From an uncultured Bacteroidales bacterium (GTDB lineage: Bacteria > Bacteroidota > Bacteroidia > Bacteroidales > Muribaculaceae), in the NCBI GenBank assembly GCA_902792435.1, contig CADAZN010000035.1, positions 1-46,134 on the forward strand: a DNA stretch of 46,134 nt, given 5' to 3'. Under the pieces are notes generated by a model, which saw only the letters and a list, made by a program, of their open reading frames with translations, had not been told where the DNA came from and made no database searches. Shown in pieces: positions 11,913-28,075 of this stretch (within the stretch, counting starts at the first letter, position 1; each line of letters begins with the position of its first letter). Position numbers and translations under genes: made by a program.

Positions 11913-13178
11913 TTAGCTGTCGCCACAGAACTGGCCTGCTTGCAGGATTGCGTGGGTAGTCTCGTCGTAGATGAAGTAGAGGAAGGGATGGGTGGCGTTG
12001 AAGGACAGATTGATTGATTTAAATATGTTGCTCTGCACTGTCACACCGCTGGCTTCGGTGCCATACTCGTTGACGGTAATCTTAGTGTCCTGCGTGAAGC
12101 GGTTGATGTAGGAATGCGCCTTGCTCAGGCGACTGAAGTCGGCATTGTCGTTGAAAGCCGTTGGCATCAAGGTTGCCAGAATGTCGCGCAAGTTCAAATT
12201 GCAGTCGGTAGAGAATCGAGGCAAAATCAAGTCAACCACCCTTTCTGGGGCTTTAAGACCTGAAAGTATGCGATTGAATTCCTCTGCGCCCATCATTGAT
12301 AGAAACTTGTTGATTTTGACATCTTTAGGCAAGACAACGAGCATACAGAACTCGCTGTTATCATATTTCATAGAGATGGCCTGGCAAGCGTTGTCCTCGT
12401 AGTACAGCTCACGAAAATATCGAAACATCGATGGCACTTGCATGGTGATGCCATCATCGTTGGTGAACTCACGGTCAAAAGTGAAATTCTTGTCAAAAGG
12501 ATTTACCCACAGGGCCTTGAATTTCAGGTAATTGATGAGGTAGATAATTTCGTTGGGGTGAGTTTGCTTGACTATGTTGTCAAATTCGCCTCCCGACTGC
12601 TGCTTGATCCAGTCATTGATTTGTTGGGTGGCCTTGCTGGTACCGAAGTCGAGATTGCTCACCTGAGCGTTATAGACACCAGTGATAGCCTTGATGTAGT
12701 CAGGATTGATGATAAACCTGTTGTTCATCGCGAGATAGTTGCTCATCACAACCGATGGCGTGAAATGAGCGACATACCGGCTATAAAATGAGTTTGCCGC
12801 TGCCGATGGCCCAGTCAACGCCTCTATCTCCTTGAGCGTGGCACCACTGGCACCATTGCTTGCCATGGCAAGTGCATAGCTCACGCTCAATGGCGAGAAA
12901 GTGAAACTCTTAAAAGGCTCACTGCTTGACTGCTTTTTCAACAGGGTGAACGCCAGTTCATTAGCCCTATCAACGCAGAGCTTGTCGTCATTGCCCAAAA
13001 CAAGAGATTTATCGCTCTTAATCACTTGCGAAGCAACACCAACTTTGCTTTGTTTCTTTTGCTTAACGGCCCTGTGAGTTTTTACTCTTTTAGCCTCGGC
13101 CGAAGTGCAAGAATGGGTGGCAAACGAGCATGCCACAACACAAATTATAATCAAAATGCGAACAAATAAGCTTTTCAT
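11913..13178 (-). CDS. Serpin-family serine protease inhibitor, secreted lipoprotein-like
   Basis: The 421-residue protein has the serpin fold signatures FSPLSVSYALAMASNGASGATLKEI and NRFIINPDY near the N-terminus. The reactive-loop hinge is GTEASGVTVQSN, and the strand motif is FNATHPFLYFIYDETTHAILQAGQF. The N-terminus is a signal peptide followed by THSCTS, so it may be a lipoprotein or simply exported. Aligning the hinge with alpha-1-antitrypsin places P1-P1' at Lys387-Ser388, which would favour trypsin-like target proteases. Serpins in gut bacteria are thought to protect against host or competitor proteases. It is monocistronic, divergent from the plus-strand cluster that starts at 13694. 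Confidence 0.9.
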   Translation of the reverse strand: MKSLFVRILIIICVVACSFATHSCTSAEAKRVKTHRAVKQKKQSKVGVASQVIKSDKSLVLGNDDKLCVDRANELAFTLLKKQSSSEPFKSFTFSPLSVSYALAMASNGASGATLKEIEALTGPSAAANSFYSRYVAHFTPSVVMSNYLAMNNRFIINPDYIKAITGVYNAQVSNLDFGTSKATQQINDWIKQQSGGEFDNIVKQTHPNEIIYLINYLKFKALWVNPFDKNFTFDREFTNDDGITMQVPSMFRYFRELYYEDNACQAISMKYDNSEFCMLVVLPKDVKINKFLSMMGAEEFNRILSGLKAPERVVDLILPRFSTDCNLNLRDILATLMPTAFNDNADFSRLSKAHSYINRFTQDTKITVNEYGTEASGVTVQSNIFKSINLSFNATHPFLYFIYDETTHAILQAGQFCGDS

Positions 13179-13693: not shown

Positions 13694-15157
13694 ATGAATA
13701 TGATAAGACGAGTATATAACATGCTAGGCATAGCGCTAGTTATGCTTGCTGTAGCATTCTTTACCGCCTCTTGTGGCGGTGGCGGCCTTGAGAAAGCCGT
13801 GAGAAAGGCGTTCATCGATGGCGACACCACCCAGGCATGCTACGACAAAATTTGCGCTCTCATCAAGGAGAACCCCAAGAGTTATTCCGAGTTTGTGACC
13901 GAGAGCGGCGACATCAATGTCGAGGCCCTTGGCAAATATATCAATGAGGTGGGCAGCAGCCTGCGTCCACCCATGACATGGGATATCACCGGCTACGGTC
14001 TGAAGGAGCTCACGCTCACAGTGTATTTTGAGCGCAGCGGCTCGATGACCCCCTACGACACTCCGGGAGGCGGCGGTCAGTTGAAGAAAGCTGTTAACGA
14101 CCTCATCAACTTCTTCCCAAGCAAAGAAGGCACTAAAATCAACATCGTTAACGACAACATCTACCCCTACAGCGGCAGCGTCGACTCGTTCCTGCAGGAC
14201 CGTAACATCTACGAGAGCACCAAGGGAACCGGCAATGCCAGCTACACCGACTTCAAGCTCATATTTGAGAAAATCATCCAGGCTCAGAAACCCGGCAACG
14301 TGAGTGTGCTCGTTACCGACCTCATCTACTCGCCACAGAACACCGCCGATGTGAGCGTGGAGAAAATCCTCAACGAGGAGAACAGTGTGGCAACTAGCAT
14401 TTTCAAGACCTACAAGGGCAAGTCAATTATTGTGAACCAGCTGATGGGCGACTATAACGGTCAATACTATCCATATAACGGAACACCATTCACCTACAAC
14501 GGTAAGCGTCCGTTCTATGTAATCATTGTTGCCGACGCATCGACCATCGACCGCATGAACGCCGACGACAACTTCGCTAAGTTCTTGCGTCCCAACGGCC
14601 TGAAGAACAGCTACCGCTTTAACCAGGCTGCTAGCGAGCTAAATGTCAAGATAATTCCCGACTGGAAGGACAATGTGGGACGCTTCCGCCAGTCGCGCAG
14701 CGAGCAGAATCTGCTTACCGACTGTGAGGGCGACCGCGAGACAGGCATTTTGTGTTTCACTCTTGCCGCCAATCTCAAGCCCCTTGCCAAGGACGACTCG
14801 TTCCTAACCAATGTAGCGAACTATAACGTGCAGTCGCAGAGTGGTTTCGACATCACAATCCGTGCCATCAAGCCCGAAGATGTGAACAACAACAACCGCT
14901 CTTACCTCGACGGCATGACTCACATCATCACCGCCAAAGGCAAATTTGCCACTTCGCGTGATGAACTGAGCATCACCCTTGCCAACCAGTTCCCCGAGTG
15001 GATAAAAGCATCGACCACCACTAGTGATATAGACCCCAATGCCGCAAATTTCTCAACCACCACTTTTGGCTTGGAGCGCTTTTTGCAGGGAATATATGAT
15101 GCCTTCTCGGCAGGAAACGACAGTTATGGAAAAATTGTAATAAAGTTAGAAAACTAA
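13694..15157 (+). CDS. Lipoprotein with a VWA-like domain (first gene of the tubulin/actin-like envelope cluster)
   Basis: The best start is the ATG at 13694; the frame is open two codons further upstream to a TTG at 13688. A signal peptide ends in FTASC, so the mature N-terminus is a lipidated Cys followed by four Gly. Counting from the TTG, residues 108-120 read LTLTVYFERSGSM, which resembles the first strand and MIDAS motif of a von Willebrand A domain (DxSxS), with Glu (E115) replacing the first Asp. Later YTDF and VSVLVTDLIYS could supply the remaining MIDAS Thr and Asp. FYVIIVADAST fits another core strand. The C-terminal part is unassigned. It begins a run of seven same-strand genes. 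A specific function is not known. Confidence 0.72.
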   Translation: MNMIRRVYNMLGIALVMLAVAFFTASCGGGGLEKAVRKAFIDGDTTQACYDKICALIKENPKSYSEFVTESGDINVEALGKYINEVGSSLRPPMTWDITGYGLKELTLTVYFERSGSMTPYDTPGGGGQLKKAVNDLINFFPSKEGTKINIVNDNIYPYSGSVDSFLQDRNIYESTKGTGNASYTDFKLIFEKIIQAQKPGNVSVLVTDLIYSPQNTADVSVEKILNEENSVATSIFKTYKGKSIIVNQLMGDYNGQYYPYNGTPFTYNGKRPFYVIIVADASTIDRMNADDNFAKFLRPNGLKNSYRFNQAASELNVKIIPDWKDNVGRFRQSRSEQNLLTDCEGDRETGILCFTLAANLKPLAKDDSFLTNVANYNVQSQSGFDITIRAIKPEDVNNNNRSYLDGMTHIITAKGKFATSRDELSITLANQFPEWIKASTTTSDIDPNAANFSTTTFGLERFLQGIYDAFSAGNDSYGKIVIKLEN

Positions 15158-15169
15158 AATATTAAAGAT

Positions 15170-15610
15170 ATGCGAGATAAGGTAATATTTTTAGTGATTG
15201 GAGCAGTGGTAAGCGTGCTGTTCTGGATTTTTAGAGTAGAGCTTTATGAGGCTGTTTACAATGTCAACGGCTTTAGCGACCAGATGTATAATACGGGTGC
15301 CTATGGCTCGGTAGCTGCCATCACCATCGCGATGTCTTGGGGCTTGGCAGCCATCTACTACTATGTAATCAACTCGGTGAAGTTTGACCGCTGGTATCAC
15401 TGGCTGGCGATGCTCGGTGTAGCAAGCGTTCTCACCCCTGTGGTGTGCTACATTGTGATAGCCAACTTCCTCGAGGGCTTCGACTACGGCACCGCCGAGT
15501 TCACCTTTGCATTTTACAACATCCTGTTCACGGCCCTTACCTTTGTAATCGCCTCGTTCTCGATGCGCTGGTGGAGCAGCAACTGCCGCCACACCCCCAT
15601 CCCTCAGTAA
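15170..15610 (+). CDS. Small four-helix inner-membrane protein of the envelope cluster
   Basis: The 146-residue protein has four predicted membrane helices: VIFLVIGAVVSVLFWIF (about 5-21), a segment around 45-66, one around 78-98 and ILFTALTFVIASFSM near 117-132. No known family was recognised. It lies 12 bp after the VWA-like lipoprotein and is followed by the tubulin-like gene after about 90 bp of repetitive filler. Its position suggests it is the membrane component of the same complex. That is inference from neighbours only. Confidence 0.65.
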   Translation: MRDKVIFLVIGAVVSVLFWIFRVELYEAVYNVNGFSDQMYNTGAYGSVAAITIAMSWGLAAIYYYVINSVKFDRWYHWLAMLGVASVLTPVVCYIVIANFLEGFDYGTAEFTFAFYNILFTALTFVIASFSMRWWSSNCRHTPIPQ

Positions 15611-15665
15611 AATGCACAATTCATAATGCATAATTTTTTAATGTTCAATTAATAAATACATTAAT

Positions 15666-15689
15666 ACCCATCACGATACCCATCACGAT
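15666..15689 (+). repeat. 12-bp tandem direct repeat before the tubulin-like gene
   Basis: ACCCATCACGAT is repeated twice without a gap (15666-15677, 15678-15689), 12 bp before the start codon. The preceding 15611-15660 is low-complexity filler with repeated CATAATGCATAAT-like words. Confidence 0.8.
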
Positions 15690-15700
15690 CACAGAATAAC

Positions 15701-17230
15701 ATGAAATTATTTGTATTTGCTATAGGTGGCACTGGTTCGAGAGTGCTCAAGTCGATGATAATGCTGTGTGCTGCTGGCGTGCGTCCCGTCGACTCTAACG
15801 GCCGCCCTCTGAACGACGTGGAGATAGTGCCCATCATCATCGACCCACACAAGTCGAATGCCGACCTCAAGCGCACCGAGCGTCTGCTCAGCGCCTACGG
15901 CACCATCCGCGAGAAGCTTTACGGCAAGAACGCCAACGCCAATGGTTTCTTCGCAACCAAAATCTCTACCTTGAAAGAAGTGGTGTCGAGCAGCCAAGTG
16001 CCCCTCGACGACTCGTTCATCTTCAACCTGGCGGCGGTCGAGAACTACAAGTTCCGCGATTTCATCAGCTACAACACCATGAACGAGCCCAACCAGGCAT
16101 TGACATCGCTGCTCTTTGCCGACTACCAGCTCGAGAACAAGATGAGCATCGGCTTCGTGGGTTCGCCCAACATTGGCAGCGTGGCGCTCAATGGTGTGAA
16201 AGACAGCAACGAGTTTAAGGCGTTTGCCAACGTCTTTGCCGACGGCGACCGCATTTTCTTTATCAGCAGCATCTTTGGTGGCACCGGTGCCGCTGGCTTC
16301 CCCATCATTGTGAAAAACATACGCCAAGCCAAGAACATCGATGCCAAGAACAAAGCGTTCTTGCAGCGTGCACCAATTGGCGGCCTTACGGTGCTCCCCT
16401 ACTTCTCACTCATGGAGAGCGACGATAAGAATGACAAACGAATCGACAACGCCGACTTTGTGGTAAAGACCCAAAGCGCGCTCGAATACTATAACAACAC
16501 ACTCACGGGCAACGGACGCAACGCTGTGAACGCCATCTTCTACCTTGGCGACCACGGACACAACGCACCCTATGCCTACGATCCAGGCGACAAGCGTGAC
16601 CAGCACGACCCCGCCCACCTCATCGAGATGGTGGGTGCCATGGCGCCGTTCAAGTTCTTGAGCCTCAGCGATAGCGAGCTCACCGACCTTGCCACTGGCG
16701 AGCCTTTGCCTACCAAGGCATTTGAGTATGGCTTGGAACACGACTCCGACTTTATCGACTTCTCGGGCTTCGGTCAAGAGACACGACAGCTCATCTACCG
16801 CCCTCTCGTGAAGCTGCACCTGCTCTACATCTTCCTGCGCACAGGATTGAACAACATCATAGGCCAGGGCTTCACCGAGGATAGTCCTAAGATTACCCGC
16901 GAGTTCACCGGCACACAGTTCTACCGAGTGCTCACTCAGCAGTTCTTCGACAGCTACATCGAATGGATGACCGAGCTGCTGCACAACCGCCGCCACGTCA
17001 CACTCTTCAACGAGGGTGAGATGGACATGAACAAGGCTATTCACAAGGTGCTCACCAAGAAAGGCATCTTTGGAAGCAAGAAGGTTGACAACGATGTGTT
17101 CAAGGCCGAGATGAACAAGCTCAGCCGCGATAACAACAGCTACGGCAGCAATCCCGAGCTCAAACTCATGGATTTGTTCTACACCGCAGCCGAGAAAATC
17201 ATCACCGACCGTTACGACAACATCAACTAG
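15701..17230 (+). CDS. Tubulin_2-type (tubulin/FtsZ-fold) GTPase-like protein
   Basis: The 509-residue soluble protein opens with a Rossmann-like strand and loop, FVFAIGGTGSRVLKSM (GGTG at 9-12). A second glycine-rich loop, IFGGTGAAGFP (GGTGAAG at 193-199), is in the place of the tubulin/FtsZ signature GGGTG[ST]G. This two-GGTG arrangement is the hallmark of the bacterial 'tubulin like' family (Pfam Tubulin_2) rather than FtsZ. The region between them contains a nucleotide-fold strand EIVPIIIDPHKSNADL. Predicted activity is GTP binding, possibly with polymerisation, in the cytoplasm. The next gene, 25 bp downstream, is an actin/Hsp70-fold ATPase. No cell-division genes are nearby, so this is not the housekeeping FtsZ. 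Confidence 0.75.
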   Translation: MKLFVFAIGGTGSRVLKSMIMLCAAGVRPVDSNGRPLNDVEIVPIIIDPHKSNADLKRTERLLSAYGTIREKLYGKNANANGFFATKISTLKEVVSSSQVPLDDSFIFNLAAVENYKFRDFISYNTMNEPNQALTSLLFADYQLENKMSIGFVGSPNIGSVALNGVKDSNEFKAFANVFADGDRIFFISSIFGGTGAAGFPIIVKNIRQAKNIDAKNKAFLQRAPIGGLTVLPYFSLMESDDKNDKRIDNADFVVKTQSALEYYNNTLTGNGRNAVNAIFYLGDHGHNAPYAYDPGDKRDQHDPAHLIEMVGAMAPFKFLSLSDSELTDLATGEPLPTKAFEYGLEHDSDFIDFSGFGQETRQLIYRPLVKLHLLYIFLRTGLNNIIGQGFTEDSPKITREFTGTQFYRVLTQQFFDSYIEWMTELLHNRRHVTLFNEGEMDMNKAIHKVLTKKGIFGSKKVDNDVFKAEMNKLSRDNNSYGSNPELKLMDLFYTAAEKIITDRYDNIN

Positions 17231-17234
17231 AAAA

Positions 17235-17252
17235 AACTGATAACTGACAACT
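17235..17252 (+). repeat. AACTGATAACTGACAACT leader element
   Basis: This 18-bp word directly precedes the start of the ATPase gene at 17256. Related words occur at 42105-42122 and 42221-42266 before another gene. It is a dispersed short intergenic repeat in this window. Confidence 0.65.
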
Positions 17253-17255
17253 ATT

Positions 17256-20200
17256 ATGAGTCAAGTACTATCATATAACAACAAGACGACGAAGACTAGT
17301 GCACAGGACTGGATTCCTGTGGCACCCTACGTTGAGGACGACATCAAGCAAATCAAGGACCCAAACGGAGGAATGAGCGAGAATCCGCGCACAGCGATTC
17401 CAAGCCCCTTTGCACAGCTTGACTTGGTTAAGAACGCATTTGAGCACCTTGCAAGCAACGCGCGCCTGGCAGGCTCGATGATGGACAAGCGACTGGTGTC
17501 GAACGCCCTCGACGTGGCTCAGCTTTTCTTTGACTTCGAGAACCACAAGGACTACTTGCACATCGTGCGATGGAACCGTGACGAGCAGATCGAGCGACTC
17601 AAGAGCGAGCCAGAACATCGCCTCTACGGCGAGACGCTGGAGCTCTTCCTCACCAGCGACACGAAATACAACTTCAACCTGCTAACCGACTGGTACATCC
17701 TGCTATGGAACAGTCAAGTGATAGGTGCCACATCGCCATCGTCGATGACCATTGCCGTGCCACGTGAGAGCGAGGAGCCCATCACCGGCATCAAGGTGGA
17801 GCAGGGCATATCGCTCTTTGACAGCGAGACCCGCGACCTGTGGCAACGCGACGAGGACTTCGTCTACTACATGTTCATGCTCTTCAACGCATTCCCCACA
17901 CTGCGCACTGCAGTGAAGGGCGTCTATGACTACATGCTCAAGAACAAGGACATCATCATGCAGCAAAAACCGCTGCTCTACAACCGACTCACGCAGGTGG
18001 TCCCCAACCTCGAAGCGCTGAGCTATGAGCTGGCACCACGCCTGGTTGAGAGGCTAGACCTGGAATTTGACCCATTTGTTGGTGACGATGAAGTTACCGT
18101 TCTTGGCGCGCGACTTTATCACAAACGCGCCCGAGACATCAAGACCTCGGCCGCTAGCAGCGACTTTGTAATCGCTCCCACACGCCAAGTTGAAGGCACC
18201 TTGCCACTTGTGCTGCGCAACAACTTCAACGGCAGCGTCGACCACTACATCTACATCGACAAGGAATGGGACAGCTCCACTCAGGTGTATGTGGGTAACA
18301 CACCCATCAACAAGCGCAAGCTGCCCGACACGAGCATAATTTACCCATTCATCACCACAGGCGACTTCTTGCAGGACACTCTCATCCGTCTCGCAGGCCC
18401 CATCGACGATGCCCACTATTTCAACGGCAACGTCATCAACAAGACCGTGGCATCACGCAACGGCTACTTGCTACCATTGACCGAGGAGTTCTTCAAGTAC
18501 TTCAACGCGAGCGATGTCACCAAGCAGGTGTGCGGGCGCGACATGCTCGAGATGGAGGAGCTGATTGACGGTTCGGTCAATGTTACCCTGCGTGTGCCAT
18601 TGAAGAAACGTTATATCGAGCTCACTCGCAACTACTACCCCATCGACGACCCATCGTGGCAGTTTGATGAGAAGCGTGGCACCGGCCGCATCATCACCAA
18701 CGTGATAATGTCGACAGCCATCTTCCCATTTGTGCGCACCAACTATAAGGACGACTATACTGTGCAATTGTTCACCATGATTGACGGTGGCGACGCATCG
18801 CTAGAATTCCTGCAGAACGGTATGGCAACCAGCGACCTCAAGGTGAGCGGCAAAACTCGCTCGGAGGGCACCTACAGCACAAAATACTACGACCTCGAGG
18901 GCTCATTTGACATCGTGAAAGCCAATGTCACAACCCCATCGGGCAATTTCTCAGGATACATCGTTCCGTTGTGGAAACCCTATGTGGCAAGCAGCAAGGA
19001 ACTGATTTTTGCCGTCGACTTTGGTACCACCAATAGCCATGTTGAGTGGTCGGAGCGAGGCCATGACGCCAAGGATCTGGAGTTTGCGCACAGCGACCGA
19101 CAGGTGCTCATCGCATCGCTTCTTAAGCGCGGCACACTTCTCTTTGCCGACCAACTGCAGCGCGTGGAGTTCCTGCCTAGCGACATCGACAATGTGTACG
19201 GATTCCCGCTGCGCAGTGCTCTCGCACGCAACGACATAAGCACTGGCGGGCACAAGCTCTTTGCCGACGTCAACATTCCATTCCTGTATGAGCGTCAATA
19301 TTTCGACGGCTATGACATCACCACCAACCTCAAGTGGATGGGCGACATCACACTCTCACGCGAGTTCTTGCGTGAGCTGGTACTCCTCATCAAGGCCAAG
19401 GTGCTGCTTGAGAACGGTGACTTGAGCCGTACCAACATCGTCTATTTCTTCCCTGTGAGCATGGGAGGCAGCGACCGACGCAAGCTCGACGACACATGGC
19501 TTGAGCTCTACCACACTTACTTTGGCGACGAGACCGAGAGCCACCTGCACGCTTATCCCGAGAGCATCGCTCCCGCCTATTTCTACAAGGGCGACGACGT
19601 GAGCGGCGGCAGCTTCGTCTCGATTGACATTGGTGGTGGAACCACCGACACTGTAATCTATCAGCCCACTGCCAACCGCCTCGACACCGAGCCTGTGGCA
19701 ATCTCGTCGTTCCGCTTTGCCGGTGATGCAATCTTTGGTGACGCATTCACCGAGCGCGATGCCGACAACAACCCGCTCATCAAGCACTATGGCGAGTACT
19801 TCAAGAGGCTGATTTCCAAGAATAGCGACATCGGCTACCTCAACAGCATCCTCCAGGATGTGCTCAAGCGCAAGCGCTCGCAAGACGTGAATGCGTTCCT
19901 CTTCTCGATTGAGAACGTGGAGCAGTTGCGCAACCTGCGCGAGGTGGACCGCAACATCTATAGCTATAACACGCTGCTGCGCAACGACTCGCAGCGCAAG
20001 CTCATCTTCATGTACTTCTATGCCGCCATCATCTACTACATCGCACAGTCGATGAAAGCGCGCAACTATGAGATGCCCAAGCAAATCTACTTCAGTGGCA
20101 CCGGCTCCAAGATTCTCAACATTCTGGGAAGCAAGGAGCAAGTGACCGAGTTCACAAGGCTCATTCTGGAGCGTGTGTTTGAGCAAGAGTACACCGAGCG

Positions 20201-20690
20201 CTTCTCTATCAAGATTGAGCACAAGAGTCCCAAGCAGATTACCTGCCGTGGCGGCATCAACCTCGAGACACTGCGCATGGATGGCAATGTCGACGTTCAG
20301 CGACTCACTCCTCGCAACGTCAACGCCATGAAGTACTGCTACTCGATGCTCAACGAGAAGCCACTGACCATCAAGTCGGTCTATGAGATTGAGGTGCGTG
20401 ACCAGCTTATTGAGCAAGTCGAGAAATTCAACCAATTCTTTGTGGGACTGTGCGACAGTGTTATCAAAGATGAGTTTGGCATCGACAACAAGGTGTTCCG
20501 CATCTTCAACAACGTGCTTAACGACAACATCAGCAACTACCTCACTGCCGGCATTGGCAACTACCTCAAGGGGCGCTACACCGGCGACGAGGCAATTGAA
20601 GACGTGCCGTTCTTCTACCCCATCATCGGCATCATTCGCCACAACCTGTTGAAGAACTTGTGCAACGAGGTGATATCGAGCACGGTGTAA
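17256..20690 (+). CDS. Giant actin/Hsp70-fold (ASKHA) ATPase of the envelope cluster
   Basis: In this 1144-residue protein the C-terminal half has all three actin/Hsp70 ATPase signatures. These are phosphate-1 FAVDFGTTNS (D588-S594), phosphate-2 SIDIGGGTTDT (D791-T799) and the adenosine motif YFSGTGSKIL (945-953). The first about 585 residues are not a recognised domain; they look beta-rich with aromatic residues and have no membrane segment or signal peptide. A C-terminal extension of about 150 residues follows the adenosine loop. The size and layout recall large SrfB-type Hsp70-like proteins, but I cannot confirm membership. It is co-transcribed with a tubulin-like protein, an uncommon pairing that suggests an ATP/GTP-driven filament or remodelling machine acting from the cytoplasm on the envelope proteins beside it. 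Confidence 0.78.
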   Translation: MSQVLSYNNKTTKTSAQDWIPVAPYVEDDIKQIKDPNGGMSENPRTAIPSPFAQLDLVKNAFEHLASNARLAGSMMDKRLVSNALDVAQLFFDFENHKDYLHIVRWNRDEQIERLKSEPEHRLYGETLELFLTSDTKYNFNLLTDWYILLWNSQVIGATSPSSMTIAVPRESEEPITGIKVEQGISLFDSETRDLWQRDEDFVYYMFMLFNAFPTLRTAVKGVYDYMLKNKDIIMQQKPLLYNRLTQVVPNLEALSYELAPRLVERLDLEFDPFVGDDEVTVLGARLYHKRARDIKTSAASSDFVIAPTRQVEGTLPLVLRNNFNGSVDHYIYIDKEWDSSTQVYVGNTPINKRKLPDTSIIYPFITTGDFLQDTLIRLAGPIDDAHYFNGNVINKTVASRNGYLLPLTEEFFKYFNASDVTKQVCGRDMLEMEELIDGSVNVTLRVPLKKRYIELTRNYYPIDDPSWQFDEKRGTGRIITNVIMSTAIFPFVRTNYKDDYTVQLFTMIDGGDASLEFLQNGMATSDLKVSGKTRSEGTYSTKYYDLEGSFDIVKANVTTPSGNFSGYIVPLWKPYVASSKELIFAVDFGTTNSHVEWSERGHDAKDLEFAHSDRQVLIASLLKRGTLLFADQLQRVEFLPSDIDNVYGFPLRSALARNDISTGGHKLFADVNIPFLYERQYFDGYDITTNLKWMGDITLSREFLRELVLLIKAKVLLENGDLSRTNIVYFFPVSMGGSDRRKLDDTWLELYHTYFGDETESHLHAYPESIAPAYFYKGDDVSGGSFVSIDIGGGTTDTVIYQPTANRLDTEPVAISSFRFAGDAIFGDAFTERDADNNPLIKHYGEYFKRLISKNSDIGYLNSILQDVLKRKRSQDVNAFLFSIENVEQLRNLREVDRNIYSYNTLLRNDSQRKLIFMYFYAAIIYYIAQSMKARNYEMPKQIYFSGTGSKILNILGSKEQVTEFTRLILERVFEQEYTERFSIKIEHKSPKQITCRGGINLETLRMDGNVDVQRLTPRNVNAMKYCYSMLNEKPLTIKSVYEIEVRDQLIEQVEKFNQFFVGLCDSVIKDEFGIDNKVFRIFNNVLNDNISNYLTAGIGNYLKGRYTGDEAIEDVPFFYPIIGIIRHNLLKNLCNEVISSTV

Positions 20691-20746
20691 GCACACATAA
20701 CAAGAAATCAATAATAATACAATCAAATAAAAAACCATTTATCGAA

Positions 20747-22039
20747 ATGAAAAAAATTATTTTTACTCTAGTGTGTGTCATGGCAGCCATGACATCACTC
20801 AGCGCTCAAGACGGCGCCAAAAATCTCTCTCAAGGACAGTGGAACCATGGCCTCGCCATTGGCGCACAGTGGATTGCCACCGACCTGGGTTTTGCACAAG
20901 CCGAGTCGCAAGTAATCGCCAAGACCAACGAGAACTACTCGCTCGATGACCTGAAGGTGATGTACGGCGGCCGCGACAAGTGGGTTACATTCTATGACAA
21001 ACTCAAAAAACACGAGAATGAGACTGGCGACCTTGACAAGCTGATTGCTACCATTACTGCCGAGTATGACAAGGGTGCTGTTATCAAGAACGGTGTGACA
21101 CGCGATGTAAATAAATACAACGCTTCACACACCGGCGATGAGGTGAACACCAACCCACACGATGCTGCAGCAACCACAACCGATGAGGCTAAAGATCCTA
21201 ATGCCGAAAATGCCGCTCCTGCAGCCGAGAACGCCGATCAGCCCGAAGCTACCAACAAAGATGCTCAGGACAACAAGGACGAGGGCAACGACTCAGGACA
21301 TGGCCTGCTCTACATCCTCACTGTTCTTGGCCTGGCTCTGGGAGCTATAGGCACATTCCTTGCTATGCAAGCTCGCAAAGAGAACCAAGTGATTATGCGC
21401 GACAATCAGGATGACATCCGCAACATGCAGAAACAACTTGACAAAATGCGCGCTGCCCTCAAGAGCGGTGCAGTTGCCGCAGCTGCAACACCACAAGGCG
21501 CTACCCGTGCTAGCAATCTCGACGAGAAAGAAGGCTTGGCCCAAACAAGGAAGATTGAGTTTGACAACCGTCAACCCAAAAAGCAGGAGCCTAAGAAAGA
21601 GGAGCCCAAGAAAGTAGAACCAAAGAGAGAAGAGCCAGCAAGAAGGCCTGAACCCAAAAGAGAGGAACCTAAGAAAGAGGAGCCCAAGAAAGAAGAGCCT
21701 AAGGCTCCAGCTATGGGTGAGCCACGCATCCTCTTCATGGCTAAGCCCGACGAGAACGACAACTTCTCACGCTCTTCGTCACAATATGAGCCCGGAAACT
21801 CTATCTTTGAGCTCACTACAATGAACGGCAAGAGCGGTTCGTTTACCGTAATCAATAAGGCCGAAGCCCACAAGCTCGCATTGCTGATGCCAGGCGACAC
21901 CCTCACCCGCGCATGCTCGGGCAACAACATCCAGTCGACAGCCGGAAGGTCGCGCATCGTTACCGACCGCGCCGGCCGCGCCCAGCTCGAGAATGGCAAG
22001 TGGCACATTGTGGTTAAAGCCATTATTCACTACGAGTAA
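20747..22039 (+). CDS. Signal-peptide/TM/coiled-coil linker protein of the envelope cluster
   Basis: I start at the ATG at 20747 (MKKIIFTLVCVMAAMTSLSAQ, a clean signal peptide) rather than the longer open frame from 20660. That frame would overlap the previous gene. The 430-residue product has an extracytoplasmic helical region (about 20-180, with an acidic Ala/Asn/Asp-rich end), one membrane helix (about 187-208) and a coiled coil (about 212-245). A Lys/Pro/Glu repeat region (about 276-321, PKKEEPKK-type) precedes a compact C-terminal domain (about 322-430) ending VVKAIIHYE. The topology places the C-terminal domain in the cytoplasm, so it could connect the periplasm to the tubulin- and actin-like ATPases. 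No family recognised. Confidence 0.72.
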   Translation: MKKIIFTLVCVMAAMTSLSAQDGAKNLSQGQWNHGLAIGAQWIATDLGFAQAESQVIAKTNENYSLDDLKVMYGGRDKWVTFYDKLKKHENETGDLDKLIATITAEYDKGAVIKNGVTRDVNKYNASHTGDEVNTNPHDAAATTTDEAKDPNAENAAPAAENADQPEATNKDAQDNKDEGNDSGHGLLYILTVLGLALGAIGTFLAMQARKENQVIMRDNQDDIRNMQKQLDKMRAALKSGAVAAAATPQGATRASNLDEKEGLAQTRKIEFDNRQPKKQEPKKEEPKKVEPKREEPARRPEPKREEPKKEEPKKEEPKAPAMGEPRILFMAKPDENDNFSRSSSQYEPGNSIFELTTMNGKSGSFTVINKAEAHKLALLMPGDTLTRACSGNNIQSTAGRSRIVTDRAGRAQLENGKWHIVVKAIIHYE

Positions 22040-22048
22040 TCCCTTGAC

Positions 22049-22120
22049 AAAGTGAGAAGGAAGAAGTGAAAAGTGTAAATAATTTGATTCTTTTCCTTAT
22101 TCCTTCTTCCTTCCCACTTT
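22049..22120 (+). terminator. Large stem-loop after the linker-protein gene
   Basis: Arms AAAGTGAGAAGGAAGAAG (22049-22066) and its complement at 22103-22120 match at 17 of 18 positions with a 36-nt loop, and a TTT follows. It could terminate or attenuate transcription before the two zinc-ribbon genes. The following 22121-22180 is a run of ACTTATTACTT-like and CCTTCC words. Confidence 0.6.
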
Positions 22121-22186
22121 TTACTTAATACTTATTACTTCACACTTATTACTTAATATTTAATATTTCCTCCTTCCCACTATTCC

Positions 22187-22900
22187 ATGCATATCTTCTG
22201 TCCCAATTGTGGAAAACATATCGACGTGTCGGCAAGCGAGATAGAGAAGCTCGAAGGGCATTATGTGTGCCCGCAGTGCCTCTCTGAAATCAACCTCGAG
22301 GGGTTTGAGCATGACGACCACTATATGGACTATATCGAGGATGATATAGACCAGCAGGACTATGCATCACAGTCACAAGAGGTGCCTGAGCTTCCCAAAG
22401 AAGACACAGGTGCCCGACAAGCTGTCAAGCCAGCAAGTAAGCCTACAACACCTCCTCTATCCCGCAATCAACACGCCCCAACAACAGCTCATCAAGGCGC
22501 CACCGACCAAGTGCTGCGCTATTGCAAGAAATGCGGGGCTTTCCTAAGGCAAGGCGTGAGCTACTGCCCCAAGTGCGGCAATTATGTAAAAGTCGCACCG
22601 CCCACCTATCGTGGAACTACTACTAGCACCACTGCGCCAGCCGCATCCCGCCCATTAAACCGTGGTAACAACGCTTCAACTCAGTCACCCTATCCAAGAA
22701 ACAGACAAAACAACCCCATGTCAAACAAATCCCGCTCATCATCTTCATCGCGCAAGGCCAACAATAGCACTGGCCAAGAAGCGTCACGAGGCATCTTCAG
22801 CATCGCTGGGTGCTTGACATTCACCATCATCGTTGTGGCGCTGTTTTTCATCCTGTATATAATCTTCGGAGTTAATAACGACGGCCTGGTGACCCCCTAA
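22187..22900 (+). CDS. Tail-anchored double zinc-ribbon protein
   Basis: The 237-residue protein has an N-terminal zinc ribbon with Cys at 5, 8, 28 and 31 (CPNCGKH ... YVCPQC). An acidic and Pro-rich linker and a second ribbon with Cys at 113, 116, 127 and 130 (YCKKCGAFL ... YCPKCGNYV) follow. After a Ser/Asn-rich linker, one C-terminal membrane helix (about 205-228) ends in a short tail. The ribbons therefore face the cytoplasm. The first ribbon's 5/8/28/31 spacing is identical to that of the next gene. Its role is probably as an adaptor or scaffold of the same cluster. No enzymatic domain is seen. Confidence 0.75.
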   Translation: MHIFCPNCGKHIDVSASEIEKLEGHYVCPQCLSEINLEGFEHDDHYMDYIEDDIDQQDYASQSQEVPELPKEDTGARQAVKPASKPTTPPLSRNQHAPTTAHQGATDQVLRYCKKCGAFLRQGVSYCPKCGNYVKVAPPTYRGTTTSTTAPAASRPLNRGNNASTQSPYPRNRQNNPMSNKSRSSSSSRKANNSTGQEASRGIFSIAGCLTFTIIVVALFFILYIIFGVNNDGLVTP

Positions 22901-22945
22901 TGTTCACGGCACAACGCGGCTTTAATATTATATATCTAAAAAGAA

Positions 22946-23572
22946 ATGAATATCGTTTGTCCTAAATGTGGATATACCACCACACAGAGCGAAGAAGAGC
23001 TACAAAAGCTCAACCACATCATCACATGCCCCAGCTGCATGTCGATGCTTAAAATAGTGAACGGAATCGCTTATATACCCAGCGAAAAAGCCAATATTGA
23101 TGATTTGGCACCTATCGACACACAACAACCACCAGAGTTCAAGGGAGAGAGCTACTACGAGCGAGGCGGAGCGCCCATCTCAAACCATGACCTGTACTAT
23201 GCTGCGGTAGAATATGTAAAAACATGCAGTGCCATCACGCTGCCCATGCTACAGCGATACTTTGAGCTTACCCCCGAGCAAGCCGAAGAGCTAATGCAAC
23301 AACTCGAAGACAACAAAATCGTTGCACCTTTTGACGGAGTGCATCCACGCAAGATTCTAATAGACCATGACACACGTCTCACCAACGCTTATTGGGGCCA
23401 AGCACGACGTTACGAGACCGAGAAACAGATAAAAGAGCAACTGGAACAGGCACAAAGCCAGAATCCTGACTCCATGCCTCGCACTCGCGGCTGCACCTGC
23501 TCGCTGCCTGGTTTTGGTGTAATAATCTTCCTTCTACTGCTCGCCTACCTCCTAATTTATCTCTTAAGGTAA
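22946..23572 (+). CDS. Zinc ribbon + FtsK-gamma-like winged helix + C-terminal membrane helix
   Basis: The 208-residue protein has an N-terminal zinc ribbon with Cys at 5, 8, 28 and 31. Residues 82-139 (DLYYAAVEYV ... ITLPMLQRYF ... QAEELMQQLE ... IVAPFDG ... PRKILID) follow the pattern of the FtsK/SpoIIIE gamma domain (DxLyxxAvexV ... aSxSlLQRrfriGYnRAaRliDqmE ... GIVgpadGskpReVLv). A basic/acidic helix (150-172) and a single C-terminal membrane helix (189-207) complete it. In authentic FtsK gamma the GYNRAAR recognition helix reads KOPS DNA. Here it is LTPEQAEEL, without the Asn and Arg, so KOPS reading is unlikely. There is no translocase motor. It is the last gene of the cluster. Confidence 0.75.
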   Translation: MNIVCPKCGYTTTQSEEELQKLNHIITCPSCMSMLKIVNGIAYIPSEKANIDDLAPIDTQQPPEFKGESYYERGGAPISNHDLYYAAVEYVKTCSAITLPMLQRYFELTPEQAEELMQQLEDNKIVAPFDGVHPRKILIDHDTRLTNAYWGQARRYETEKQIKEQLEQAQSQNPDSMPRTRGCTCSLPGFGVIIFLLLLAYLLIYLLR

Positions 23573-23608: not shown

Positions 23609-24949
23609 TCACTCTCCTATAGCCTGCTTGTAATCAAGCATTTTGTTTTGATATTCAATGAAGGCGTCGGTGCGCATGTCACATGCCTGCTGAAACAATA
23701 GCTGCGCTTCGAGCAAATCACTCATCTTCGACATTCCCACACTGTAGAGGTCGCGGTTCACGCGCAGGTTCTCGGTAGCCTGCTCAATGCTCAGCTTTGC
23801 CAGCTGCATTTGATTATAGGCCTCTTCCACCCCATTCCAGGCATTCTGCATGCGTATTATAAGCAGTTGCGCGTTATCGTTCAGCTGCTCTCTAGCTTTA
23901 AGGCTCTCTATCTTGTTGCGATTAACAGCATGGCGGTTGGTCCACCAGTCCGAGATTGGAATGCTCACAGTGGCAAACACCATTCCAAACGAGTGGTTCT
24001 TGTCAAGCAAATTATGATAATTATAACCAGCGCCAACCGACACCGTGGGCAGATTCTTTCCACGTGTTATCCTCTCCTGCAGTTCCGAGGCTTCGAGCTG
24101 CTTGTTCAAGAGCTTGTACTCCGTGGTGTTCAGTATTGCCAAGTCATGGTCCTGCCTGGTTTGAACGGGCAATGGCACATCCTGGTTGTAGGATACTGTG
24201 AACGCAGTGTCTCTCAAGCCACAATACTGGCACAACAGCAGTTTCAACATCGATATTCCGTTGTTCAGCTTCATCTTCTGGCTAGTGAGCTCATTTTGTC
24301 GCAGCTGAACCTGAAGAAGGTCGTTTCGTATGGCAAGACCAGCTTTCAACGCCACCTCGGTATCTTTGGATATAGTGCCCAGCAACTCCTCCGAGGCTTT
24401 AACAGTCTTCACCTTCTCATACAATGACACCAGTTGCCAAAAGTAATGTTGAGTGGTTTTCTCCACTTCATTCTCCGACATCTCGAGTTTCAACAGGCTC
24501 ACATCTTCTCCCACCTTGGCAAGCTTGTTGCCATTCACGATTCGCCCTCCGGCATAGATGGGCTGAACGGCAGTTACTGCTGCAATAACACCATTCTTCA
24601 TCATCGACACGTTGATAGGTCTTGACATCGATGCAAGGACTTGTGGTGGCAAACTTTGAGCCATCATCTGGCTCAAGTCGCTTGGAATAAACTCTTGTGG
24701 CTTGAGAGTCATCTCGGCCATTCCTTTATTGGCCTCAAACCACATTCCCGAGGCGCTCACGGTGGGGAAATAGTTCATGCGCGCTTCCTTCTTTTGAAGC
24801 TTTGCCGCCTCAATATCGTGCTTCGCCGTCCTGATGGCAATGTTGCAACTACGTGCCGAGTCACACAATTGTTCTAAATTATAGGCTGGTTGTGCTTCAC
24901 ACATCACAAAAGCCGTTACTGCGACAACCAATGACAACCAATGTCTCAT
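23609..24949 (-). CDS. TolC-family outer-membrane efflux protein
   Basis: The 446-residue protein has an N-terminal signal peptide (WLSLVVAVTAFVMCEAQ). The duplicated TolC layout of alternating alpha-helical barrel and beta segments is visible: YNLEQLCDSARSCNIAIRTA at the start and FPTVSASGMWFEANKG. The repeat half has LPTVSVGAGYNYHNL, and LLEAQLLFQQACDMRTDAFIEYQ comes near the end. It forms the outer-membrane channel for the RND pump encoded 9 bp upstream in the same operon. It is convergent with the zinc-ribbon gene at 23572, with no clear terminator between. Confidence 0.93.
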   Translation of the reverse strand: MRHWLSLVVAVTAFVMCEAQPAYNLEQLCDSARSCNIAIRTAKHDIEAAKLQKKEARMNYFPTVSASGMWFEANKGMAEMTLKPQEFIPSDLSQMMAQSLPPQVLASMSRPINVSMMKNGVIAAVTAVQPIYAGGRIVNGNKLAKVGEDVSLLKLEMSENEVEKTTQHYFWQLVSLYEKVKTVKASEELLGTISKDTEVALKAGLAIRNDLLQVQLRQNELTSQKMKLNNGISMLKLLLCQYCGLRDTAFTVSYNQDVPLPVQTRQDHDLAILNTTEYKLLNKQLEASELQERITRGKNLPTVSVGAGYNYHNLLDKNHSFGMVFATVSIPISDWWTNRHAVNRNKIESLKAREQLNDNAQLLIIRMQNAWNGVEEAYNQMQLAKLSIEQATENLRVNRDLYSVGMSKMSDLLEAQLLFQQACDMRTDAFIEYQNKMLDYKQAIGE

Positions 24950-24958
24950 AGTGAGTTA

Positions 24959-27900
24959 TTATTTTAAGTTTGTTTTCCAATAAATAACGGGCAGCATAGT
25001 GACCACCATAATCAGTGAGCCAATGCCACCAGCAAAGATAGTAACGCCCACAGGCATCCAGAACGACGACTGCGCTATAATCATGGGCACCACACCAACC
25101 GCCGTTGTGGCTGTGGTGAGGAAGATGGGAACCATGCGACGCTTGCCGGCATCGTAGGCCGCCTGCTTAACGGCTTCGTTGTAGGCTTTTCGGTCTTTCT
25201 TCCAGTCGCCATGCTCTGCCACATATTTCTTTATCAATTCGTTGGCATGCTCAAAGATTAGAATCTCGTTGCGCATTATAATACCCATGAGAGTAATCAA
25301 TCCAAAGATTGACGTCAATCCCAATGCTCGGTCCATCATGCCCAGGCCTATCAGGGCACCGGGCGTCATCAATCCCAAAGCGGCAAGACACACTATTGTG
25401 ATGCCAAATTTCTTGAAATTAAACAGCAGGAAGAAGAAAATGATAATCATGGCAATTGCTATACCCCAGAATATCTGTGGCAGAGCCTCGTTGCCATACT
25501 CAATCTCACCTCCCACCTCACAACGCACTCCTTGAGGGATAGGAATCTCTTCTTCCATGATTTTTGCAATATTTTTCTCGACTGGACCAGTGTACACGCC
25601 TTGCTTGAACTGCCCAGTCACGGTGATGCAACGCTCGCCGCCACGGTGCATTATGCGGCTCTCGCTCCACATGGGTGCCACCTGTGCCACTTGCCTGAGT
25701 GGAACGGTAGTGTTCTTGCCACCCGCATTTCCTGCCAAAACCGAATTGGTGGTTACCATGCCAATGTCACCAACGCTCGAGAACGACAATACAGCATCAT
25801 CCTTGACAACGATGGGCACATCATTGTTGCCTTCCCACACTTCTCCCACCTTGAGGTCACTTGTCATGGCGCCAAGGGTGAGTTGAGCGCCACTTCTTGT
25901 AACACCCAGCTGCGCCGAAGCCACTGGATCGAGCTGCACATTAACAATGGGATAGGGCTGGAAATAATCGGTGTGCACCCATTCCACCTCGGGCATCTCA
26001 CGCATGCGCTCCATCAGTCGTTCGGCCACCACATGCAACGAGTCGATATTGTCGCCATAGAAACGATATTCCAGCTCGTTGACCTCAAGATAGTCAAGAC
26101 GCTTGAATTTGACATAGGCATTGGGAAATGCTTCGCCAAACATTGGCTGATATTTGGCGAGCAACTCGAGCGTGGCCTTGTTTGACTTAGTGTTCACAAT
26201 AAACTGAGCATAATTCTTGCCAGCCATTTGGGGCGCATAAGCGTCCATAAATCGTGGAGAAGAGCACCCTATGAAGCTGGTGATTCCCACCACGTTGGCG
26301 TCTTTTTTCAGCTCTTGATAAACCGTGTTGGCAATTCGCTCAGTCTCGGCTAAGCCCTTGCCGTCGGGCAAGAAAATCTCCACGGCAAACTGGTCACGGT
26401 CGGCATAGGGGAAAAGGCGAATCTTGAGCGTGTTCACAATCAACGACGACAGCATAATCACCACAATGCCTGTCAATATCGTTATCCACGGATGCCTGAA
26501 GGTGAAGTCGAGCACATGGTTATAGGTGCGCTGCACTCCATTAGTAATAGCGTTTCCACCCGTTTTCACCTTGCCTGGCTTGATGATGCGCACTTCAAGC
26601 AACGGAATAATGGTCACCGCGATAAGCAGCGACACCATCAGGTTAATCGTGATAGTGATGGGGAAATCTTTCAGAGCATCATAGAAAGTTCCTTTCATCG
26701 TGATAAGGAAAGGATAGAAGATAATGCTAATGCACAAGGTCGCCAGCAACATGGGCAAGAAATACTGCTTTGCCGAGTCGATGGCTGCACGCTTGGGCTC
26801 ATAACCTTTGCCCAGATACTCCAGATATCCATCAATAACCACGATGCTATTGTCGACAATCATTCCAAGCACAACGATAAGTGCAGCCAGCGTCACAATG
26901 TTAAGCTCAATGCCGGCAAACCACATGATTGCCACCGAGACAAAGGTGCTCAAGGGTATGGTGATGGCAGCCACAATCGCCGAGCGAATGGGGAACAACA
27001 CCATCATCACCAAGATGATAATCAGCATCGACACGAGCAGGTCACGCAAGAAGTCGGTGACACTCACGCTCACCACCTTGGGCTTGTCGGCAATGCGAGT
27101 CACGTTGACATCGCTCGGAAGTTCGTTCTTCCGGTAATCATCAAGCACTTTCTCTACATCGCGGCCATATTGCAGCACATCGTTGCCAGGCGTCATCTCC
27201 ATCGACAAGAGCACGCATGGATGCCCGTCCTGCTCGATGCGGTCGGCCTGAGAATCATATTCCCTGGTCACTCGCGCAATATCCCTCACGCGCACCACCT
27301 TCCCCGAGTGAGGGTCGGAAAAGATGATTAGATTGGCTATTTCCTCTTCGCTGTTCTGCGTTGGTTCCACATGGATTGGCACTTGCTGGTCGGCATTGCT
27401 GATGCTACCGCTCATGGTGGTGATGCCTTGCGATTGCAACTCCGAGAGCAGCATTCTTTCACCAATACCATAAGCCTGAAGCCGTTGGCGGTCGATGTAG
27501 AGACTTATTTGCTCTTTGTGCTCGCCATAAATCTTCACGTTGGCCACCGATGGTATCCTGCGCAAGCGGTCGCTTATCTCATCGCTATATTGCTTCAGGT
27601 CGCGGTAGCTTCGCTCCTTGCTGTCGATAGCAATTAGCAACGTCGAGGTGTTTCCAAAGTCGTCGTTTACAACCAATGCCAGCACGCCCGAGGGCAGTTG
27701 GCTCTTGAAGGTGTTGAGGCCGTGCTTTATCTTGCTCCAAACCTCATCCTTATTGTTTACGTTGTCGTTCAACCTCACAAACGCAAAGCACATTCCATTT
27801 TGCGAGGTGGTCGATGTTTTTGCACGGTTCACTTCACCATAGGTGAACAGATACCGCTCCAAGGGGCGAGTTACTTGCTGCTCCACCTCCTCGGTAGTGG

Positions 27901-28072
27901 CTCCAGGATAGACAGCCACAACCACTCCCTGCCTGATAGTGACATGCGGAAACTCATCCTTAGGCATCACATACATGCCATAAATGCCCAGCACAAACAG
28001 GATTCCAATGATGAGCAGTGATATGGGGTAATGCTCAAGAGGCCACTTGAGCCAATTCATCTTCTTCTCCAT
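24959..28072 (-). CDS. RND-family efflux pump inner-membrane subunit (AcrB/HAE1-like)
   Basis: The 1037-residue protein has the RND layout: TM1, a large periplasmic porter domain (about 40-335), TM2-6, a second periplasmic domain and TM8-12. The proton-relay helix TM4 reads VLGMIVDNSIVVIDG, with D407 present but Asn at 408, where AcrB has a second Asp. The predicted function is proton-driven export of hydrophobic compounds through the adaptor (28076-29179) and TolC (23609-24949). The gaps are 3 and 9 bp, so the three genes form one operon. Confidence 0.94.
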   Translation of the reverse strand: MEKKMNWLKWPLEHYPISLLIIGILFVLGIYGMYVMPKDEFPHVTIRQGVVVAVYPGATTEEVEQQVTRPLERYLFTYGEVNRAKTSTTSQNGMCFAFVRLNDNVNNKDEVWSKIKHGLNTFKSQLPSGVLALVVNDDFGNTSTLLIAIDSKERSYRDLKQYSDEISDRLRRIPSVANVKIYGEHKEQISLYIDRQRLQAYGIGERMLLSELQSQGITTMSGSISNADQQVPIHVEPTQNSEEEIANLIIFSDPHSGKVVRVRDIARVTREYDSQADRIEQDGHPCVLLSMEMTPGNDVLQYGRDVEKVLDDYRKNELPSDVNVTRIADKPKVVSVSVTDFLRDLLVSMLIIILVMMVLFPIRSAIVAAITIPLSTFVSVAIMWFAGIELNIVTLAALIVVLGMIVDNSIVVIDGYLEYLGKGYEPKRAAIDSAKQYFLPMLLATLCISIIFYPFLITMKGTFYDALKDFPITITINLMVSLLIAVTIIPLLEVRIIKPGKVKTGGNAITNGVQRTYNHVLDFTFRHPWITILTGIVVIMLSSLIVNTLKIRLFPYADRDQFAVEIFLPDGKGLAETERIANTVYQELKKDANVVGITSFIGCSSPRFMDAYAPQMAGKNYAQFIVNTKSNKATLELLAKYQPMFGEAFPNAYVKFKRLDYLEVNELEYRFYGDNIDSLHVVAERLMERMREMPEVEWVHTDYFQPYPIVNVQLDPVASAQLGVTRSGAQLTLGAMTSDLKVGEVWEGNNDVPIVVKDDAVLSFSSVGDIGMVTTNSVLAGNAGGKNTTVPLRQVAQVAPMWSESRIMHRGGERCITVTGQFKQGVYTGPVEKNIAKIMEEEIPIPQGVRCEVGGEIEYGNEALPQIFWGIAIAMIIIFFFLLFNFKKFGITIVCLAALGLMTPGALIGLGMMDRALGLTSIFGLITLMGIIMRNEILIFEHANELIKKYVAEHGDWKKDRKAYNEAVKQAAYDAGKRRMVPIFLTTATTAVGVVPMIIAQSSFWMPVGVTIFAGGIGSLIMVVTMLPVIYWKTNLK

Positions 28073-28075
28073 AGC

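What the first reader, a model, noticed from the sequence alone, without database searches (positions are those of the whole stretch)
13694..23572. Seven-gene envelope cluster pairing a tubulin-like GTPase with a giant actin/Hsp70-like ATPase
The sequence shows seven consecutive plus-strand genes. They encode a lipoprotein with a VWA-like motif, a 4-TM protein, a protein with two GGTG loops in Tubulin_2 arrangement, and a 1144-residue protein with all three actin/Hsp70 signatures. A signal-peptide/TM protein with a cytoplasmic C-terminus and two tail-anchored zinc-ribbon proteins complete the set. A tubulin-fold and an actin-fold protein as adjacent genes, with parts placed in outer leaflet, inner membrane and cytoplasm, suggest a dedicated cytoskeleton-like or remodelling machine spanning the envelope. 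The function is inference; the fold assignments follow from known motifs.
Basis: partly seen in the sequence, partly recalled or inferred. Interest (0 to 1): 0.9.

Follow-up and report, generated by a model that had tools for sequence, protein, structure and literature searches.

The report
Paired tubulin-like and actin-like envelope system
This gut bacterium carries a conserved gene set in which a distant relative of tubulin travels with a giant relative of actin, together with membrane and lipid-anchored partners, pointing to an uncharacterised machine at the cell envelope that in some other bacteria sits beside genes for a wall-anchored motor.

Summary
The seven genes are real. Genes 1-5 (lipoprotein, small membrane protein, tubulin-like GTPase, ~1100-aa actin/Hsp70-fold ATPase, signal-peptide/TM protein) are the conserved unit: core in the window's genus (gene 3 in 80 of 81 genomes), patchy in Bacteroidota, with gene 3-4 pairs also in Firmicutes-labelled MAGs and cyanobacterial plasmids. 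Gene 4 follows gene 3 within 900 nt for 78 of 83 gene-3 ORFs; exceptions are a split ORF, two insertions, a contig end and one natural fusion. Nucleotide motifs are near-invariant although the most distant pairs share 13-17% identity. In 21 of 89 loci (one contig counted twice) a ZorA/ZorB-like motor pair follows, not in the window genome; TerD follows in 6 of 13 distant loci; the window genus has zinc-ribbon proteins. Best reading: an envelope transducer in which a membrane-tethered tubulin-actin pair (compare FtsZ-FtsA) links a periplasmic lipoprotein to exchangeable modules. Closest precedent: the predicted FtsZl1/vWA system (2010); my searches found no paper describing both folds as an obligate pair. 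The vWA fold and 'outer leaflet' are unproven. No structure was obtained (queue).

The parts
13694..15157 (+). gene 1: 487-aa lipoprotein with MIDAS-like motif (ERSGSM ... VLVTDL); possible vWA-like periplasmic domain
   Evidence: lipobox Cys27 in 19 of 19 aligned; Glu in place of the first MIDAS Asp in 42 of the 48 with the motif; two cyanobacterial relatives have DGSGSM and DASGSM; no Pfam/PDB vWA hit
15170..15610 (+). gene 2: 146-aa multi-TM membrane protein; poorly conserved except a C-terminal [ST]P[FIL] tail
   Evidence: 33 of 52 relatives have [ST]P[FIL] in the last 14 residues
15701..17230 (+). gene 3: 509-aa tubulin/FtsZ-superfamily GTPase (short Tubulin_2-like branch)
   Evidence: T1 IGGTG at residues 8-12, T4 SIFGGTGAAG at 190-199
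17256..20690 (+). gene 4: 1144-aa ASKHA (actin/Hsp70-fold) ATPase; ATPase motifs in the C-terminal half, unidentified ~570-aa N-terminal half
   Evidence: motifs at residues 587-593, 791-798, 946-952
20747..22039 (+). gene 5: signal-peptide-like start, TM (187-205), charged linker, conserved C-terminal domain predicted cytoplasmic
22187..22900 (+). gene 6: zinc ribbons and C-terminal TM (lineage-specific)
22946..23572 (+). gene 7: zinc ribbon, FtsK-gamma winged-helix domain, C-terminal TM (lineage-specific)
   Evidence: FtsK_gamma E 2.1e-10, over cut-off; same domain in 4 of 10 zinc-ribbon-type neighbours tested, one of them upstream of gene 1

Best explanation
A conserved five-gene system builds a membrane-tethered, NTP-driven transducer. 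SHOWN by sequence: a lipoprotein, one small multi-TM and one single-TM protein, and two proteins without export signals, one of tubulin and one of actin/Hsp70 superfamily, that are co-inherited, adjacent, and once encoded as one polypeptide. INFERRED: the lipoprotein senses a state of the envelope through its vWA-like domain; the membrane proteins pass this to the cytoplasm; the ASKHA ATPase acts as nucleotide-dependent tether and switch for the tubulin-like GTPase, as FtsA does for FtsZ; the resulting (possibly polymeric) GTPase scaffold works with an exchangeable module: a ZorAB-like peptidoglycan-anchored ion motor in many Bacteroidota, TerD proteins in part of a distant clade, and zinc-ribbon/winged-helix membrane proteins in the window's genus. 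The exchangeable modules lean towards stress or conflict; near-universality within the genus says that here it is a stable physiological function.
For: Gene 4 within 900 nt downstream for 78 of 83 gene-3 ORFs, exceptions explained (loci partly chosen by gene 4); 13 of 13 in genomes found by gene 3 only; 5 of 5 in viral-collection contigs; the same five cyanobacterial plasmids found by gene 3 and by gene 4, the two hits side by side. Distance correlation r 0.979, and 0.944 for pairs under 60% identity, 70 of 78 pairs used. Nucleotide motifs near-invariant. Fusion of genes 3 and 4 in L088 without an ATG/GTG/TTG codon around the expected gene-4 start. ZorAB-like pair downstream in 21 of 89 loci (L085 and L104 are the same contig, L144 and L145 near-identical); the ZorB-like profile matches 8vvn_B (5e-13) and 8qyd_F (6.8e-7, listed as 'Membrane protein', from the entries of the ZorAB complex); PADLOC ZorB1 1.9e-7 and ZorA2 6.2e-5 for the L144 genes; in 26 genomes that I chose, nearly all as carriers of the cluster, 7 of 8 ZorB-like genes lie within 3 kb of gene 4. 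TerD in 6 of 13 distant-clade loci (Pfam-checked for two proteins).
Against: No predicted or solved structure. The vWA assignment rests on motifs. The window genome has no ZorB-like gene, and only 7 of 26 genomes searched have one, so the motor link does not apply here. No PADLOC model fits genes 3 or 4. Co-inheritance of neighbours partly follows from linkage itself. The fusion is a single MAG case. hhalign of gene 3 with FtsZ was not significant (E 0.044). Outside Bacteroidota genes 1, 2 and 5 are recognised mainly by position and size.
Confidence: 0.5

Rival explanations
1. Cytoskeletal / membrane-remodelling machine: gene 3 polymerises under the membrane with gene 4 as co-polymer or tether and shapes or constricts the envelope, the proposal of Makarova and Koonin for FtsZl1.
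For: Tubulin T1 and T4 loops and a possible H7-like QxNxAHxxE motif (my reading); actin-fold partner; vWA-like and OmpA/MotB-type neighbours as in the FtsZl1 operons; near-universal in the genus.
Against: No T7/filament interface could be mapped; 188 of 247 genomes of the family sample lack gene 3, so not basic shape or division; canonical FtsZ is also present in G000.
Confidence: 0.25
2. Anti-phage or biological-conflict system akin to Zorya, Ter or the GTPase-centric systems of Kaur et al. 2020.
For: ZorAB-like pair in 21 of 89 loci, TerD in 6 of 13 distant loci, one cluster a few kb from relaxase and integrase genes, plasmid and viral-collection copies, varying downstream genes.
Confidence: 0.2
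3. Assembly or quality-control apparatus: gene 4 is a large Hsp70-like chaperone and gene 3 a GTPase scaffold that help build a surface or secretion structure.
For: ASKHA fold includes chaperones; lipoprotein and SP-TM partners; trypsin-like protease downstream in L042 (read by eye).
Against: No Hsp70, GrpE or DnaJ family among the Pfam rows shown for the seven genes or the gene-4 relatives; no recurrent secretion gene recognised beside the core (one search lists sizes and profile labels only).
Confidence: 0.1

Closest known systems
FtsZl1 / vWA predicted membrane-remodelling system (Makarova and Koonin 2010, PMC2875224, text parts 1-3 of 5 read)
   Same: Tubulin_2-type GTPase, vWA-type partner sometimes with signal peptide, OmpA-type proteins, TM proteins; their alignment includes a Bacteroides caccae and several cyanobacterial sequences
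   Different: Most FtsZl1 have a long coiled coil (example 1051 aa), ours are about 460-600 aa; the parts read name kinase, GTPase and OmpA partners but no actin/Hsp70 protein, stator pair or fusion; supplements not read
FtsZ-FtsA pair (recalled)
   Same: Tubulin-like GTPase with an actin-like ATPase; FtsA is the most frequent weak Pfam match of gene-4 relatives (10 of 20 members at E up to 1, best 0.0012)
   Different: Separate from and additional to canonical FtsZ; gene 4 is 1144 aa; envelope partners differ
DO-GTPase/GAP1-N2 conflict systems (Kaur et al. 2020, PMC7159879, sections 28-29 and passages read)
   Same: Tubulin, HSP70, vWA, zinc ribbons and TM parts in one family of systems
   Different: There tubulin and HSP70 themes are described as non-overlapping and accompany DO-GTPase plus GAP1; the tubulin theme is stated as restricted to firmicutes and actinobacteria
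Zorya ZorAB (PMC11890865, passages read; PDB 8qyd, 8qyh)
   Same: Downstream pair in 21 loci: TM protein with long helical tail plus MotB/OmpA-type protein with a TM Asp in 17 of 18
   Different: ZorC/D/E not searched for; ZorB-like gene absent from the window genome
SrfB (PF07520)
   Same: Giant protein with an ASKHA-like match region; weak similarity (E 0.05-0.13)
   Different: Below cut-off; SrfB neighbourhoods not examined here
Ter stress systems (TerD, PF02342)
   Same: TerD genes follow the cluster in 6 of 13 distant loci
   Different: No TerD match in the window-genus loci searched

Membership tests
FtsZ/tubulin superfamily (gene 3) | N-terminal GTP loop T1 and glycine-rich T4 signature | tested here: met
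   Gly 9, 10, 12 and Ser190, Phe192, Gly193, 194, 196 in 70 of 70 aligned
FtsZ/tubulin superfamily (gene 3) | Significant profile match to a curated tubulin family | tested here: met
   Met through relatives: window protein itself below cut-off; relatives E to 3.3e-7; L139 relative over the Tubulin_2 cut-off, 40.8 vs 27 bits, and matched by the window protein at 24% identity, E 8e-15
FtsZ/tubulin superfamily (gene 3) | T7 catalytic loop and filament formation | tested here: inconclusive
   Not mappable from sequence; structure job unfinished; hhalign with FtsZ not significant (E 0.044 and 0.35; controls 0.57 and 0.67)
FtsZl1 (Makarova and Koonin) | N-terminal FtsZ-like domain plus extended coiled coil and helical C-terminus (majority of members) | tested here: not met
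   509 aa, relatives about 460-600 aa apart from the fusion; coiled coils not computed, judged by length
FtsZl1/vWA system | Linked vWA-domain gene | tested here: inconclusive
   MIDAS-like motif in 48 of 51; no Pfam/PDB vWA match
ASKHA ATPases (gene 4) | Phosphate 1, phosphate 2 and adenosine motifs | tested here: met
   Asp588, Gly590, Asp791, Gly793, Asp798, Gly948 in 70 of 70; PDB MreB E 1.3e-4; one relative over the Pfam MreB cut-off
Hsp70 chaperone | Match to the Hsp70 family with substrate-binding domain | tested here: not met
   No Hsp70 family match in Pfam; PDB Hsp70 hits only in the ATPase region
SrfB | Pfam SrfB gathering score | tested here: not met
   10.6 vs 27.1 bits
DO-GTPase/GAP1 systems | TRAFAC DO-GTPase with GAP1 | tested here: inconclusive
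Zorya | ZorA and ZorB | tested here: not met
   No ZorB-like gene in G000; ZorAB-like pair in 21 of 89 related loci

The most novel reading that the evidence does not exclude
A further kind of obligate tubulin-actin partnership besides FtsZ-FtsA: a two-NTPase signal machine that in many lineages is mechanically coupled to a peptidoglycan-anchored, ion-driven ZorAB-like rotary motor, so that envelope damage sensed outside is converted into assembly or disassembly of a tubulin-actin scaffold inside.
Probability: 0.3. Interest if true: 0.92.

Novelty: new variant of a known kind. Interest (0 to 1): 0.76.

Why it matters
It would add a widespread, uncharacterised tubulin-actin system to bacterial cell biology, unify fragments reported separately (FtsZl1 operons, OmpA neighbours, ZorAB stators, Ter proteins), and give a five-gene core, present in cultured Bacteroidota, on which the long-open function of Tubulin_2 proteins can be tested directly.

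Tried and rejected
Seven-gene unit: rejected, genes 6-7 are not kept outside a lineage. Phage-encoded system: no match in the phage record collection; the five viral-collection contigs hold genes 3 and 4 side by side, three of them with genes 1 and 2 by profile, like cellular loci. vWA by homology: A5 and A10 gave no PDB vWA hit, Pfam none; kept as motif only. hhalign of gene 3 with seven FtsZ sequences (an eighth extraction came out empty): E 0.044, not significant. PADLOC hit of gene 5 to PD-T4-6 (E 3.5e-6) judged a match of its charged linker. Divergent ZorAB-like genes in L079, L102, L105, L031, L047, L122 and L042: looked for, none convincing; L036 and L037 have a short ZorA-like match without ZorB. 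Paper search for ZorA with tubulin was of no use because the short terms matched unrelated words; one search replaced it. Papers: PMC2875224 parts 1-3 of 5; PMC7159879 sections 28 and 29 plus passages; PMC9871819, PMC7824862, PMC11890865, PMC12505986 passages only; all others only in listings. The statement that no paper was found describing the tubulin-ASKHA cluster rests on searches of open-licence papers only.

Counts and drops: one search used 70 of 78 pairs (8 dropped by length). Loci were partly chosen through gene 4, so 78 of 83 is biased; the figure free of that bias is 13 of 13. Some loci are the same genome or contig reached twice (L085 and L104; L040 and L121; L044 and L124), so locus counts slightly exceed independent cases. 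Motif counts are by regular expression and a few matches may sit at another place; 3 of 51 gene-1 proteins lacked MIDAS 1, 7 of 51 the S/T-D strand and 7 of 51 a lipobox by those patterns. One search left out the plasmid loci L139-L142. Three of the five cyanobacterial plasmids were read, two were seen only as hit positions; in L139 gene 1 is on the opposite strand; gene 2 had no profile match in the three.
Full report
What is there. The seven plus-strand ORFs at 13694-23572 are confirmed, closely spaced (12-147 nt). No Pfam or NCBIfam match of genes 1-5 reaches a curated cut-off; in PADLOC only gene 5 of these five matched (PD-T4-6, E 3.5e-6, over its charged linker).

The folds. Gene 3: tubulin T1 (IGGTG) and T4 (SIFGGTGA) loops; 18 of 19 aligned members match Pfam Tubulin and Tubulin_2 at E up to 1, best 7.9e-6 and 3.3e-7; a cyanobacterial relative passes the Tubulin_2 cut-off. 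A conserved QxNxAHxxE segment (Q in 70 of 70; N in 57 and D in 13) looks like the guanine-contacting start of tubulin H7; that is my reading, not a test. Profile comparison with seven FtsZ sequences was not significant (E 0.044). Gene 4: three ASKHA motifs, PDB profile hits to MreB, Hsp70 and FtsA, one relative over the Pfam MreB cut-off. Its N-terminal ~570 residues are unidentified. Gene 1: lipoprotein with MIDAS-like motif where Glu usually replaces the first Asp (42 Glu, 6 Asp of 48 with the motif); two cyanobacterial versions have the canonical Asp; no homology search found a vWA match. Gene 2: small multi-TM protein, poorly conserved. Gene 5: signal-peptide-like start, one TM, conserved C-terminal end. 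Gene 6: zinc ribbons; gene 7: zinc ribbon plus FtsK-gamma winged helix; both end in a TM.

Distribution. Gene 3 is in 80 of 81 genomes of the genus, 39 of 39 of the good ones; gene 3 in 59 of 247 and gene 4 in 47 of 247 genomes of the family sample (different query types); gene 4 in 6 of 296 of the phylum sample and in 1 of 63 and 2 of 348 in two Firmicutes samples, each count including the starting genome. Named relatives: Sodaliphilus, Prevotella, Bacteroides, Gillisia, Christiangramia, Maribacter, Hymenobacter, Solirubrum, Pedobacter, Rudanella and three Firmicutes-labelled MAGs; Prevotella oral taxon 299 and cyanobacterial plasmids of Gloeothece and Picosynechococcus relatives.

Linkage. 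Order 1-2-3-4(-5) recurs in Bacteroidota. In the distant clade, the Firmicutes MAGs and the cyanobacteria genes 3 and 4 are found by profile, while genes 1, 2 and 5 are wholly or partly recognised by position and size. Of 83 gene-3 ORFs 78 have gene 4 downstream within 900 nt; the other five are a split ORF, two insertions, a fusion and a contig end. Among 13 genomes detected by gene 3 but not gene 4, all 13 had gene 4 adjacent; the one genome with gene 4 only (G147) is cut at a contig start. Gene-3 and gene-4 distances correlate at 0.979, and 0.944 for diverged pairs. In L088 both are one 1660-aa ORF with no ATG/GTG/TTG codon at residues 491-575; it is one MAG, so a lost stop cannot be excluded. 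Upstream genes are rarely shared (22 of 528 locus pairs).

Exchangeable modules. In 21 of 89 loci the core is followed by a ZorA-like protein (TMs, PLYLGLxGT motif, long helical tail) and a ZorB-like protein (TM Asp in 17 of 18, OmpA-like C-terminus by eye); two more have a short ZorA-like match only. The ZorB-like profile matches a solved MotB-related chain and a chain of the ZorAB entries; the ZorA-like profile matches MotA/TolQ-type chains and ZorA, in a list otherwise made up largely of coiled-coil proteins. Of 26 genomes searched 7 carry ZorB-like genes and 7 of the 8 genes lie within 3 kb of gene 4; the window genome has none. In the distant clade TerD follows in 6 of 13 loci and an unidentified protein of about 550-720 aa in 9 of 13. 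The window genus has zinc-ribbon proteins; FtsK-gamma was found in 4 of 10 such proteins tested.

Mechanism. Shown: compartments by sequence signals, co-inheritance, intact NTPase motifs. Inferred: sensing outside, NTPase switch inside, exchangeable output. The FtsZ-FtsA analogy (recalled) gives the most economical role for an actin-fold partner of a tubulin-fold GTPase: membrane tether and switch.

Known or new. Makarova and Koonin described FtsZl1 proteins with vWA, GTPase, kinase and OmpA neighbours and suggested membrane remodelling; their set includes a Bacteroides and cyanobacterial sequences, so this branch of tubulins may already be in it. Kaur et al. reported tubulin and HSP70 as separate themes of GTPase-centric conflict systems. 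The tubulin-ASKHA pair in three phyla, the fusion, and the ZorAB-like and TerD links were not found in print (searches listed under Tried and rejected). Hence a new variant of a known, as far as I saw experimentally untouched, kind.

Limits. No structure; vWA unproven; motor link absent in the window's own genome; locus counts include a few repeats; taxon labels of MAG loci are the depositors'.

Noticed in passing
L144:12535-14905 and 20 further loci: ZorA/ZorB-like ion-motor pair directly downstream of the tubulin-actin core; candidate new Zorya-type context
   Followed up: partly
L088:2442-7424: Single 1660-aa ORF fusing the tubulin-like and actin-like proteins in a MAG labelled Syntrophomonadaceae
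   Followed up: partly
L114:14313-17588: Two TerD proteins and a 663-aa unidentified protein after the core in a distant clade
   Followed up: partly
window 22946-23572: FtsK-gamma winged helix in a small zinc-ribbon protein with C-terminal TM, outside any FtsK
   Followed up: partly
L146:2941-5955: Relaxase and integrase genes (Pfam) a few kb upstream of the cluster: possibly a mobile island copy
   Followed up: no
L069 and L070, between genes 3 and 4: Insertions of about 1.6-2.6 kb split the otherwise adjacent pair; content not identified
   Followed up: no
L032:7996-14622: Second copy of the cluster with two tandem gene-4 homologues in a genome of the same genus
   Followed up: no
L144:16417-17179: DNA/RNA non-specific endonuclease gene (Pfam) at the end of one stator-type locus
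   Followed up: no
window 11913-13178 (-): By eye a serpin-like lipoprotein gene divergent from the cluster; not tested
   Followed up: no
window 23609-29179 (-): By eye a TolC/RND/membrane-fusion efflux operon convergent with the cluster; not tested
   Followed up: no
L042:13075-14130: By eye a secreted trypsin-like protease gene downstream of the core in one clade
   Followed up: no
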